DNA of 24,852 bases from the IMG/VR virus record IMGVR_UViG_3300037258_000104, positions 1 through 24,852 of that record. One strand, given 5' to 3'. Positions 386 to 23,410 of this stretch are shown here, piece by piece (positions within the stretch are counted from its first letter, which is position 1; the number at the start of each line of letters is the position of its first letter). Below the pieces are notes generated by a model. That model searched no databases and was not told where the DNA came from. It saw only the letters and a program-made list of their open reading frames with translations. The position numbers and the translations under genes were made by a program. The stretch comes from a virus.

Positions 386-472
386 GCCGAAGTGGCGGAA
401 TTGGCAGACGCGCGTGGTTCAGGTCCACGTACTCGCAAGGGTGTGGGGGTTCGAGTCCCTTCTTCGGCACCA
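386..472 (+). tRNA. tRNA-Leu (anticodon CAG), probable phage attachment target
   Basis: The acceptor stem GCCGAAG (386-392) pairs with CTTCGGC (462-468), followed by discriminator A469 and an encoded CCA (470-472). The anticodon stem is CGTGG/CCACG (413-417/425-429) with loop TTCAGGT, giving anticodon CAG at 420-422, which reads CUG (Leu). A long variable arm makes it a class II tRNA, as expected for leucine. The T-arm has a GGGGG stem (two G-U pairs) and the loop TTCGAGT. Phage genes begin shortly downstream and a tyrosine integrase sits at the opposite end, so the 3' part of this tRNA is the likely attB core. The duplicated core expected at the far end is not inside the window. Confidence 0.97.
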
Positions 473-17205: not shown

Positions 17206-17597
17206 TGACCATTCGAGAGGCTGCACAACAGGCAATAGACGTGCAAAATGCATGTAACCTTTCCGGGGTTGTGGCAGCGATGCACACAGCCGTTATGGAC
17301 GTTCTCTGGCCTGAGGCTAGGCGCATCGGTCAGGGTACTAGCTGGGTCAACACTCACCCCATTGTGTATCTCTACCTTGACAAGCTGGCGAGTCTGAACG
17401 GTACCCAGTGTCTCTGCTCTGACAATCTCAACAGTTATTCCAAAGCGTATGCCAAGGTTGAGGCTATGGCCACGGCGGAAAATGAGAATAATGGCGTCTG
17501 TCCAAAATGCGGATTGGCTACAGTGAAACCCGATGACCGCAGCCCGTGGCAACATGCTGGAAGCGGAATGATTCTCTGTGAAGGTACTCATTCCTAG
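17205..17597 (+). CDS. Early phage protein with C-terminal metal-binding site (130 aa)
   Basis: Residues 1-95 are helical ('IREAAQQAIDVQNACNLSGV', 'HTAVMDVLWPEARRIGQGT', 'WVNTHPIVYLYLDKLASL'). I recall similar 'AxxAxDVQxACNLSGV ... WVNxHPI' proteins in phage and plasmid early regions, without a known function. The C-terminal 35 residues contain C-P-K-C and a later H/C pair, a possible zinc knuckle. It is the last gene of the four-gene early operon and is followed by a GC hairpin. Confidence 0.7.
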   Translation: MTIREAAQQAIDVQNACNLSGVVAAMHTAVMDVLWPEARRIGQGTSWVNTHPIVYLYLDKLASLNGTQCLCSDNLNSYSKAYAKVEAMATAENENNGVCPKCGLATVKPDDRSPWQHAGSGMILCEGTHS

Positions 17598-17605
17598 CAG
17601 AGTGG

Positions 17606-17626
17606 ACGGGGCGAACCCAGCCCCGT
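17606..17626 (+). terminator. Weak hairpin after the early operon
   Basis: ACGGGGC and GCCCCGT form a perfect 7-bp stem with a 7-nt loop, but only TTAA follows. It is probably an attenuator or partial terminator. The rest of 17598-17753 contains further short GC-rich inverted repeats and no gene. Confidence 0.4.
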
Positions 17627-17753
17627 TTAATGCGGCGTATGCGGTCACAAGCCCCGCATTGTTAGACTGGACAGTCAGCCGTGCCGCACCTTTACGGTAA
17701 GCTGACCGTCTGGGGTGGTACCCGGTGCCGGTACGTAACCCGGCTATATCCCT

Positions 17754-21235: not shown

Positions 21236-21681
21236 GCGCCTGCTGACTAAACTGAGACCGGCGGCGGTAGAGCCTTCTGGTTTTTTCCCGGTGAAAAGGG
21301 CGACCCCGCATTGCTCAAGGCCACCGTCAGCGAGGACTTCATTCCATAACTTGAGCAAGTAACCTCATCGTAACGCGGAGACTCGCGACATCTGTCGCGA
21401 CTTACGTATACGGAGGCGGATGGAGTTATAGGGAAAATGTTAGGAAATTATTTCCGGCGTTAAGAACTAATTTGAAAGGAGTAACATCATGATGCACTCA
21501 ATGCTCGTGGGAACGTCTTAGGACCATAATATGCGTTGTGCCCAGTGTTTATGCGGGAATTAGCGAGTAACAGTATTAGCGAGTACTAAATAATCATACG
21601 AGTCGAAATACAATCATCGGTATCATATGTATGTGGACATTGACGGAATTACAAGGTCAAGACCGCATTGGAGACACTTAC
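21236..21681 (+). promoter_or_regulatory. Regulatory region upstream of the Mom-like gene
   Basis: About 445 bp without a full gene but dense in symmetric elements: TTGCTCAAG/CTTGAGCAA (21311-21319/21350-21358), TCGCGAC-ATCT-GTCGCGA (21383-21400), the palindrome GGAAATTATTTCC (21443-21455), and the 11-bp direct repeat ATTAGCGAGTA at 21559-21569 and 21575-21585 (16-bp step). CTTACGTATAC (21401) resembles the TTACGTAA sites near 20280. The architecture suggests tight control of the following operon. Confidence 0.5.
21489..21521 (+). CDS. Possible 10-aa leader peptide
   Basis: MMHSMLVGTS is preceded by a strong ribosome-binding site (AAAGGAG, 7 nt before ATG) and ends at TAG 21519. It is too short for any protein-level test. 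A real ribosome-binding site in an otherwise regulatory stretch makes a leader peptide plausible; chance is the alternative. Confidence 0.25.
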   Translation: MMHSMLVGTS

Positions 21682-21726
21682 ATGGCAAAGCAAGTAACAA
21701 CATCACCGTGGGTTCCGGTAAGCTAA
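21682..21726 (+). CDS. Mini-ORF (14 aa) overlapping the Mom-like gene start
   Basis: MAKQVTTSPWVPVS has GGAG 8 nt before its ATG, and its TAA overlaps the next ATG (TAATG). That arrangement is identical to the overlaps between early genes here and predicts translational coupling. The frame is also open upstream to an ATG at 21631 (31 aa) without a ribosome-binding site. Confidence 0.45.
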   Translation: MAKQVTTSPWVPVS

Positions 21727-23099
21727 TGCCGCCGATTACCCTCGTCTCGGAGGACATCCTCGCTCGGTACACGGCTCTCGATGCCAAGCTGACCAGCAGT
21801 ACGCGTAAGTGGGTCAAGCAATGGGAGGCGGACATACCGTTGCTGGCAGAGATGCAAACGTTGTTAGGGCAGCGTAGCTCCATGCGTGTGCAGGATATGC
21901 CGGAGAGTTGGACATCGTGGTTCAATTCGTTTGTTGAGGGCACTGGGTTCCCGCTGTCCCTGCGGCAGGTGCAGCGCAAGATCGCTATGCTGCGTGGAGA
22001 CGCACCCGCCACCCCGGCAGAGGAACCGAAGGAACTCCCCGAGGAGAGGCTCTTGGCGGAGGCACGGGAGCAGTTCGGAGCAGCGGCTGCGGCGGGCAAC
22101 GAGCAAGCCATCGCCATCATTGCTGACTATGCGCAGCGGCTGGCAGACGCAGAGGACACCGAGGAAGCCAAGCAGAACATCAACGTGGTCGCTGTTGAGA
22201 TGACCCGCCGTCTGCAATCCGTGGCAACGCGCAGGAACGAGATGAACCCGAGTGTCAGGACAAATCTAATCGCTGCGATGCGCACCACGTTGGAGTTATT
22301 GGAGGCGGACTTTCAGCAGCCGGTGGCCACCGGCAAATGTCACCAACGTTTGGTGCGTGAGCACATGGCTACGTTGCCTGACCCCGACCTTGAGGCAAAG
22401 ATGGCAGTGTCTGCGGATTTCTCACTCGCCAGCGTGAGAGAGATTAGCTACGAGGAGGCTCAGACGGTCATCTTGAGCAATGAATACTTGGGGACGATGG
22501 GCTCCGTCAGCCACTCGTACGGGCTCTACTTCGGCCAGTTTTTGGGTGGCTGCGTCTGCTTGGGGTCCACCGCCGGGACAGGCACAAGCATGTTGTGTGG
22601 TGACACGCACCAAGACAAGGTGACGACCATCGTCAGGGGAGCTTGCTTGCCGTGGACTCCGGTCAATTCCGCCACGTATCTGGACGCTAAGGCTTGCAAG
22701 CAGATGGCCAAGTATGGCAAGCACATCTTCATCAGCTACAGCGACCCGGCTGGAGGCGAGGTTGGCACTATCTACTCCGCCATCAATCATCTGTACTGCG
22801 GCATGACAACACCGACTGAGAGGTACCGCTGGCATGGCCGGGTCTACGATGGGCGTCAAGTAAGCGGTATGGCCAGAGACCGCACTGGCGGGACTCTAAA
22901 GATGAGGCGTAGCAGAGCGCAACAGAAGGCGTTGCTCATTGAGCAGGGTGCCGAGTTTTTCCTTGGCAACGCCAAGCATCGGTGGGTTGGATTCTACGGC
23001 TCCCCCGGCCTGAAGAAGACGCTGAGGGCGGCTCTGACATGGGACGTGGAGACGGCACTACCTAAGCGGGAATCGCAACAGGAGACACTTGCAGCGTAA
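21726..23099 (+). CDS. Mom-like GNAT-fold protein fused to a helical N-terminal domain (457 aa)
   Basis: Start chosen at ATG 21726 because of the TAATG coupling; the frame opens from 21627. The N-terminal about 100 residues contain 'LSLRQVQRKIAMLRG' (77-91), like the DNA-binding helices of replication/ParB-like or DUF3102-type proteins. A long Ala/Glu-rich coiled coil follows (about 100-200). The C-terminal part (about 235-427) resembles phage Mu Mom and relatives: 'SVSHSYGLYFGQFLGGCVCL', 'RGACLPWTPVNSATYL', 'FISYSDPAGGEVGTIYSAIN', and an end segment 'KHRWVGFYG' like the usual K-x-R-Y/W-V-x-F. Mom modifies adenine in phage DNA and blocks restriction enzymes. The assignment is from remembered motifs, not a search; another GNAT role is possible. 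Confidence 0.5.
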   Translation: MPPITLVSEDILARYTALDAKLTSSTRKWVKQWEADIPLLAEMQTLLGQRSSMRVQDMPESWTSWFNSFVEGTGFPLSLRQVQRKIAMLRGDAPATPAEEPKELPEERLLAEAREQFGAAAAAGNEQAIAIIADYAQRLADAEDTEEAKQNINVVAVEMTRRLQSVATRRNEMNPSVRTNLIAAMRTTLELLEADFQQPVATGKCHQRLVREHMATLPDPDLEAKMAVSADFSLASVREISYEEAQTVILSNEYLGTMGSVSHSYGLYFGQFLGGCVCLGSTAGTGTSMLCGDTHQDKVTTIVRGACLPWTPVNSATYLDAKACKQMAKYGKHIFISYSDPAGGEVGTIYSAINHLYCGMTTPTERYRWHGRVYDGRQVSGMARDRTGGTLKMRRSRAQQKALLIEQGAEFFLGNAKHRWVGFYGSPGLKKTLRAALTWDVETALPKRESQQETLAA

Positions 23100-23163: not shown

Positions 23164-23358
23164 ATGGACTTGATTGAGCAAATTGAAAACTGGGGTCGCG
23201 CACTAAAGGTAGAGGAACTTGCTCACCTTTTGCAGATTTCGGAGAAGACCATATATCGATACATCAGCGCGAGAAAGCTCCCCGCCTTCCGCCAGGGCGG
23301 CATCATGCGATTGGAGGCCCACCGGACGGCTGAGTGGGTGAGGTCTAGGTTGTCTTAG
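23164..23358 (+). CDS. Excisionase-like HTH protein (64 aa)
   Basis: A single MerR/HTH_17-type winged helix: 'LKVEELAHLLQISEKTIYRY', then 'ISARKLPAFRQGGIMRLEAH' and a final helix 'RTAEWVRSRL'. This is the standard small excisionase/DNA-binding helix-turn-helix fold, whose partner is the integrase encoded nearby on the other strand. RBS GGAGG is 8 nt before the ATG. Excisionases bend att DNA to direct excision. A regulator role is an alternative for this fold. Confidence 0.75.
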   Translation: MDLIEQIENWGRALKVEELAHLLQISEKTIYRYISARKLPAFRQGGIMRLEAHRTAEWVRSRLS

Positions 23359-23382: not shown

Positions 23383-23410
23383 GAAGCCCCACGGTAAGCT
23401 GTGGGGCTTC
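23383..23410. terminator. Bidirectional-type terminator hairpin after the excisionase-like gene
   Basis: GAAGCCCCAC (23383-23392) and GTGGGGCTTC (23401-23410) form a perfect 10-bp stem with an 8-nt loop. The following GTTCTCTT is T-rich but not a pure T-tract. It lies between convergent genes (23164-23358 plus, 23417-23584 minus) and can serve both. Confidence 0.7.

What the first reader, a model, noticed from the sequence alone, without database searches (positions are those of the whole stretch)
21627..23099. Mom-like DNA-modification candidate fused to a DNA-binding/coiled-coil N-terminus, with a coupled mini-ORF
The C-terminal half carries the ISYSDPxGGxxGTIYSAIN and KHRWVGF segments that recall Mu Mom and related phage acyltransferase-fold proteins, but the protein is about 457 aa, well over the size of Mom, with a replication- or ParB-like helix region and a coiled coil in front. 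A 14-codon ORF with its own ribosome-binding site ends in TAATG at the start codon. In phage Mu the small gene com overlaps mom and controls its translation, so the arrangement here is a suggestive parallel, although the mini-ORF encodes no zinc finger.
Basis: partly seen in the sequence, partly recalled or inferred. Interest (0 to 1): 0.72.

Follow-up and report, generated by a model that had tools for sequence, protein, structure and literature searches.

The report
Phage Mom-type enzyme with helper fused
A phage that probably infects Acidobacteria carries a relative of phage Mu's Mom DNA-modifying enzyme, welded to a helical helper segment that appears to be a separate neighbouring gene in a related bacterium, so the enzyme is of a known kind but its build and active site are unusual.

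Summary
ORF 21726-23099 (457 aa) has a C-terminal Mom domain: Pfam Mom E=2.9e-16 (60.2 bits against a 27.1 cut-off), PHROG Mom-like 3.8e-17. A confident AlphaFold model of residues 230-447 matches the Mu Mom crystal structure 8bv8 at Z 18.7; the next GNAT scores 12.9.

It belongs to a sister clade of canonical Mom ("E-type") in which the conserved His58 of Mu is Glu. That clade gave at least 466 IMG/VR loci. This protein is also Thr where Mu Ser124 (S124A is inactive) sits.

The N-terminal ~203 aa is all-helical at low confidence and matches no family, ParB included. It resembles genes that sit separately, with 4-nt ATGA overlaps, directly upstream of both E-type Mom genes of Occallatibacter savannae. 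Two other acidobacterial relatives fuse Mom to a different N-terminus, one also fused to an MT-A70 methylase in another phage. Some relatives have a ParB-like gene directly upstream.

The Com parallel is weak: the mini-ORF encodes no zinc finger, the RNA is unremarkable, and about 1% of shuffles give as much.

Verdict: new variant of a known kind. Most likely a restriction-evading adenine acyltransferase with a fused DNA-contact or oligomerising module. Its chemistry is untested.

The parts
21726..23099 (+). CDS, 457 aa, Mom-family protein with N-terminal helical extension
   Evidence: Open frame; Pfam PF25680 Mom and phrog_1384; codon composition
21726..22334 (+). N-terminal helical extension, residues 1-203 (helper-like segment)
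   Evidence: All-helical AF2 prediction at pLDDT 40-64; local similarity to separate upstream genes in Occallatibacter; linker similarity to L098
22335..23096 (+). Mom/GNAT domain with its conserved leader motif C-H-Q-R-x-x-R (residues 204-457)
   Evidence: Z 18.7 to 8bv8 over residues 228-447; Q207 46/46 and R211 45/46 in E-type relatives
22482..22484 (+). Glu253, replaces His58 of Mu Mom; Glu in 45/46 E-type relatives
22635..22637 (+). Arg304 = Mu Arg111, invariant
22674..22676 (+). Thr317 = Mu Ser124 (S124A is the 'inactive mutant' of PDB 8bv8); Ser in 43/46, Thr in 3/46
22743..22745 (+). Asp340 = Mu Asp149
22758..22760 (+). Glu345, Glu in 45/46 E-type relatives; His in most canonical Mom, Arg154 in Mu
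22773..22775 (+). Tyr350 = Mu Tyr159, invariant
21682..21726 (+). 14-codon mini-ORF MAKQVTTSPWVPVS ending TAATG; possible leader for translational coupling
   Evidence: Shine-Dalgarno UGGAGA, -6.4 kcal/mol; 1.15% of shuffles reach this; no exact copy of its ribosome-binding and start region in IMG/VR
23164..23358 (+). AlpA/excisionase-like HTH gene downstream
   Evidence: HTH_17 1.5e-10; 53% identical to a gene near the Mom locus of L174
23671..24792 (-). tyrosine integrase (temperate phage context)
   Evidence: Phage_integrase 3.2e-10, phrog_1 3.8e-27
23383..23410 (+). terminator-like hairpin after the mom - HTH pair
   Evidence: 12-pair stem followed by a T-rich tail

Best explanation
This is a Mom-family GNAT-fold DNA-modification enzyme of a temperate phage that most likely infects Acidobacteriota. 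By homology it transfers a small acyl-type group to a DNA base, most likely adenine N6 as in Mu, and so shields phage DNA from host restriction enzymes. The N-terminal ~203 residues are a helical helper module fused in frame to the enzyme; in a relative a similar helper is made from a separate, translationally coupled gene. The helper most likely contacts DNA or drives oligomerisation, setting where or how processively the enzyme acts. The 14-codon ORF most likely serves only to bring ribosomes to a poorly initiating start codon. Shown: family, fold, clade, active-site columns, the separate upstream genes and their overlap. Inferred: the chemistry, the helper's role, the anti-restriction purpose and the host.
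For: Mom profile matches: Pfam E=2.9e-16, PHROG 3.8e-17. A profile of 46 relatives finds exactly one solved sequence, Mu Mom 8bv8, at 1.7e-20. AF2 pLDDT is mostly 82-98 over residues 231-440; 8bv8 Z 18.7 over 199 residues against 12.9 for the next chain; Foldseek 4e-10. Mu Arg111, Asp149 and Tyr159 are kept. In a 90-sequence tree the window protein sits in a 6-row clade with 100/100 support whose other rows are four acidobacterial loci and one viral contig. Occallatibacter savannae carries two E-type Mom genes, each preceded by a separate ~272-275 aa gene overlapping by ATGA. The window N-terminus matches these at E=2e-6 (68% over 25 aa) and E=2e-4 (24% over 123 aa). The linker also matches L098 at 9e-5. 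Integrase and AlpA-like genes of the window recur near acidobacterial Mom loci. Phage context: terminase, portal, capsid and integrase genes.
Against: Helper homology rests on short or weak local matches (one alanine-rich) in one genome. The N-terminal model is unreliable (pLDDT 45.5 alone). The window protein departs from 8 of 29 near-invariant E-type positions, more than any other E-type member, including Ser317Thr, Gln351Ser and Tyr420Trp; it could be altered in activity or decaying. No modification has been measured.
Confidence: 0.72

Rival explanations
1. The E-type clade, this protein included, is a Mom relative with different chemistry: Glu at the two positions held by His in canonical Mom (Mu His58 and the GHxG histidine) implies a different metal or acceptor arrangement, hence a different modification or target base.
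For: Glu253 and Glu345 are each Glu in 45/46 relatives and change together; the one exception has His at both. E-type and canonical rows are split at 100/99. Gly305-Ala306 and the CHQRxxR leader are further clade-wide differences.
Against: Arg304, Asp340 and Tyr350 and the overall fold are kept. No biochemical data exist.
Confidence: 0.3
2. The window protein is a decaying or inactive copy.
For: It has the most departures from near-invariant positions of any E-type member, 8 of 29, one of them at the Mu Ser124 position.
Against: The 457-codon frame is intact with strong third-position bias throughout. Thr at that position also occurs in two relatives, L039 and L059. Arg, Asp and Tyr are kept.
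Confidence: 0.15
3. A com-mom-like regulatory operon: the mini-ORF product or its translation controls mom in trans, as Com does in Mu.
For: Mini-ORF with a good ribosome-binding site overlapping the start codon; weak site at the main start.
Against: 14 residues without cysteine; no zinc finger next to the gene; RNA fold of 21627-21790 no better than shuffles, z -0.41. Simple coupling explains it.
Confidence: 0.04
4. The fusion is an assembly or gene-calling artefact: two genes in reality.
For: In Occallatibacter the two parts are separate overlapping genes.
Against: Single frame with uniform codon composition across the junction; acidobacterial relatives L097 and L098 are also single long frames with a similar linker.
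Confidence: 0.05

Closest known systems
Phage Mu Mom (241 aa as annotated in NC_000929, PDB 8bv8, Pfam PF25680, PHROG 1384)
   Same: GNAT-type fold over residues 228-447, Arg111/Asp149/Tyr159 equivalents, phage context
   Different: 19% identity; Glu for His58, Thr for Ser124, extra ~203 aa N-terminus, no com gene
Mom-REase fusions of jumbo phages (PMC7824862)
   Same: Mom domain joined to another domain
   Different: There a restriction endonuclease-fold nuclease; here a helical module without a recognisable nuclease
MT-A70 methylase fused to an N-terminus of the L098 type (Bradyrhizobium phage ppBdUSDA122-1, L167)
   Same: The same N-terminal type is fused to E-type Mom in acidobacterial relatives L097/L098, suggesting a shared module for base-modifying enzymes
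   Different: The window's own N-terminus shares only the linker with L098, not the region that matches L167
Separate helper gene + E-type mom pairs of Occallatibacter savannae (L173:4843-6413 and L099:3174-4846)
   Same: Order helper then Mom, local similarity to the window N-terminus, integrase gene nearby in L173
   Different: Two genes with a 4-nt overlap instead of one protein

Membership tests
Mom family (PF25680 / PHROG 1384) | Profile match above the curated cut-off | tested here: met
   60.2 bits against 27.1, E=2.9e-16; PHROG 3.8e-17
Mom family (PF25680 / PHROG 1384) | GNAT-type fold closest to Mu Mom | tested here: met
   8bv8 Z 18.7, rmsd 4.0, 199 aligned; next 12.9
Mom family (PF25680 / PHROG 1384) | Conserved Arg, Asp and Tyr (Mu 111, 149, 159) | tested here: met
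   Arg304, Asp340, Tyr350
Mom family (PF25680 / PHROG 1384) | Serine at the Mu Ser124 position | tested here: inconclusive
   Thr317, a conservative change also seen in 2 of 45 relatives
Mom family (PF25680 / PHROG 1384) | Makes N6-(carbamoylmethyl)adenine in DNA | not testable with these tools
   Needs LC-MS
Canonical (His-type) Mom subfamily | His at Mu position 58 | tested here: not met
   Glu253, as in 45/46 E-type relatives; separate clade 100/99
Mu com-mom operon | Overlapping zinc-finger com gene upstream | tested here: not met
   The mini-ORF lacks Cys; no zinc-finger-like ORF next to the gene start
Mu com-mom operon | Inhibitory RNA hairpin at the mom start | tested here: inconclusive
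   RNA fold z -0.41, not more stable than shuffles
ParB-like N-terminal domain | ParB_N / ParB PHROG profile match in residues 1-205 | tested here: not met
   No match up to E=10 in Pfam or PHROGs; the in-house ParB profile also gives no hit in the window

The most novel reading that the evidence does not exclude
E-type Mom enzymes form a widespread, undescribed branch of phage DNA hypermodification, with a Glu/Glu active site and interchangeable partner modules (helical helper, MT-A70-type N-terminus, ParB-like protein, GIY-YIG nuclease). They make a base modification different from Mu's, at sites set by the partner; the window protein is the fused helper form.
Probability: 0.2. Interest if true: 0.75.

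Novelty: new variant of a known kind. Interest (0 to 1): 0.45.

Why it matters
As far as I know, how Mom chooses its sites and what accessory proteins it needs is poorly understood. A form in which a helper is physically joined to the enzyme, with relatives where it is a coupled neighbour gene, gives a direct way to test what the helper does. The E-type clade, at least 466 loci, suggests that Mom-like modification is far more common in phages than Mu alone implies, and possibly chemically different.

Tried and rejected
N-terminal 200 aa against IMG/VR, phages, Pfam, NCBIfam and PHROGs and a 396-genome draw of the phylum of G004: nothing except the Occallatibacter upstream gene, which lies in the centre genome of that draw. 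A DUF3102-like reading of residues 36-90 was made by eye only and no profile confirms it. AF2 of the N-terminus alone with 4 sequences gave pLDDT 45.5 and pTM 0.24; no fold search was run on it, so no fold is claimed or excluded. The best PDB sequence hits of the full protein by phmmer were designed repeat proteins, taken as compositional chance. PADLOC: no match. Exact search for the mini-ORF's ribosome-binding and start region in IMG/VR: none. Literature searches found no report in the held library of E-type Mom, ParB-Mom pairs or this fusion; most subscription papers are not held.

Full report
What is there. The + strand frame 21726-23099 encodes 457 aa. The frame is open back to an ATG at 21627 (490 aa), but third-position GC is 0.48 there against 0.75 from 21726 on, so 21726 is the likely start. 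The gene lies in a temperate phage fragment of 24.9 kb with terminase, portal and major head genes on the minus strand, a replication-initiation-like gene upstream, and an AlpA/excisionase-like HTH gene and a tyrosine integrase downstream.

Mom identity. The C-terminal part matches Pfam Mom at E=2.9e-16, 60.2 bits against a curated 27.1, and PHROG 1384 Mom-like DNA modification protein at 3.8e-17. A profile from 46 relatives finds one solved sequence, Mu Mom 8bv8, at 1.7e-20. An AlphaFold model built on those relatives is confident over residues 231-440. It matches 8bv8 at Z 18.7 over 199 residues, with other GNATs at 12.9 or lower; Foldseek gives 4e-10.

Which kind of Mom. In an alignment with Mu and other Mom proteins, Mu Arg111, Asp149 and Tyr159 are kept as Arg304, Asp340 and Tyr350. 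Mu His58 is Glu253, and the His common at the position of Mu Arg154 is Glu345. Both are Glu in 45 of 46 relatives, and the single exception has His at both. A maximum-likelihood tree separates these 'E-type' sequences from canonical ones with 100/99 support. E-type proteins also share an N-terminal C/A-H-Q-R-x-x-R leader (Q207 46/46, R211 45/46). They are numerous: one scan of IMG/VR gave 466 confirmed loci, of which 80 were kept. The window protein is the most divergent E-type member, differing at 8 of 29 near-invariant positions, including Thr for Ser at the position whose Ala mutant is called inactive in the title of 8bv8. Thr occurs in two relatives too, so this does not show inactivity.

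The N-terminal extension. Residues 1-203 match no family in Pfam, NCBIfam or PHROGs and nothing in IMG/VR or phage records. The predicted structure is helical but unreliable. The informative evidence came from acidobacterial genomes. Occallatibacter savannae has two E-type Mom genes, each preceded by a separate gene of 272-275 aa that overlaps it by ATGA. The window N-terminus matches one at E=2e-6 over 25 aa and the other at E=2e-4 over 123 aa. Each match is modest, and one is alanine-rich, but order and position agree. Two further acidobacterial relatives, L097 and L098, are single long proteins whose linker resembles the window's (E=9e-5 for L098). Their most N-terminal part is of another type, PHROG 33995, also found fused to an MT-A70 methylase in a Bradyrhizobium phage. 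The window protein, L097 and L098 group together at 96/79 inside a 6-row clade with 100/100 support. The AlpA-like gene and integrase of the window have relatives near L098's locus, and the integrase has one near one of the Occallatibacter loci. An acidobacterial host is therefore likely but inferred.

A broader pattern. In 12 of 82 non-redundant E-type loci with enough upstream sequence, a ParB-like gene ends within 78 nt of the start of the Mom domain, mostly in one clade. Three of these proteins scanned against PHROGs match ParB-like families and the ParB part of a DNA methyltransferase family. Another clade carries a C-terminal GIY-YIG nuclease domain. E-type Mom thus appears with several kinds of partner; the window shows one more.

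The mini-ORF. ORF 21682-21726 has a good ribosome-binding site (-6.4 kcal/mol) while the main start has a poor one (-2.2); 1.15% of shuffles give an overlapping ORF with such a site. Translational coupling is plausible. A Com-like role is not: the peptide has no cysteine and the RNA folds no better than shuffles. In Mu, Com is a zinc-finger protein that opens an inhibitory hairpin in mom mRNA (PMC6483171).

Interpretation. The most likely reading is a restriction-evading DNA-base acyltransferase of the Mom family with a fused helper that contacts DNA or oligomerises (0.72). That Mom protects Mu DNA from restriction comes from PMC6483171 and PMC7824862; the chemistry of this protein is not shown. 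The leading rival is that E-type enzymes make a different modification (0.3, not exclusive). Decay of this copy is possible (0.15).

Limits. The helper homology rests on one genome with two loci; the N-terminal fold is unknown; no modification data exist; and the literature search covered open-licence papers only.

Noticed in passing
L065:2971-4425, L074, L078, L080, L082, L091 (whole E-type ORFs of 485-512 aa): E-type Mom fused at its C-terminus to a GIY-YIG nuclease domain (Pfam GIY-YIG 3.3e-9 in L065), a single clade, on contigs including 246-328 kb ones.
   Followed up: partly
L029, L033, L035, L038, L046, L051, L053, L060, L071, L072, L083, L101 (gene directly upstream of the Mom ORF): ParB-like gene directly upstream of, usually overlapping, the E-type Mom gene; three scanned against PHROGs also match the ParB part of PHROG 498 DNA methyltransferase.
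   Followed up: partly
L086:2932-4705: Two E-type Mom ORFs in tandem in one viral contig.
   Followed up: no
window 17596-17657 +: Type-P5 twister ribozyme, 52.9 bits against a 37.6 gathering score.
   Followed up: no
window 386-472 +: tRNA-Leu (anticodon cag) near the left end of the phage record.
   Followed up: no
L166:576-1598 and L167:2492-4471: An N-terminal domain similar to that of L098 (PHROG 33995 type) occurs in a Synechococcus phage hypothetical protein and, fused to MT-A70, in a Bradyrhizobium phage.
   Followed up: partly
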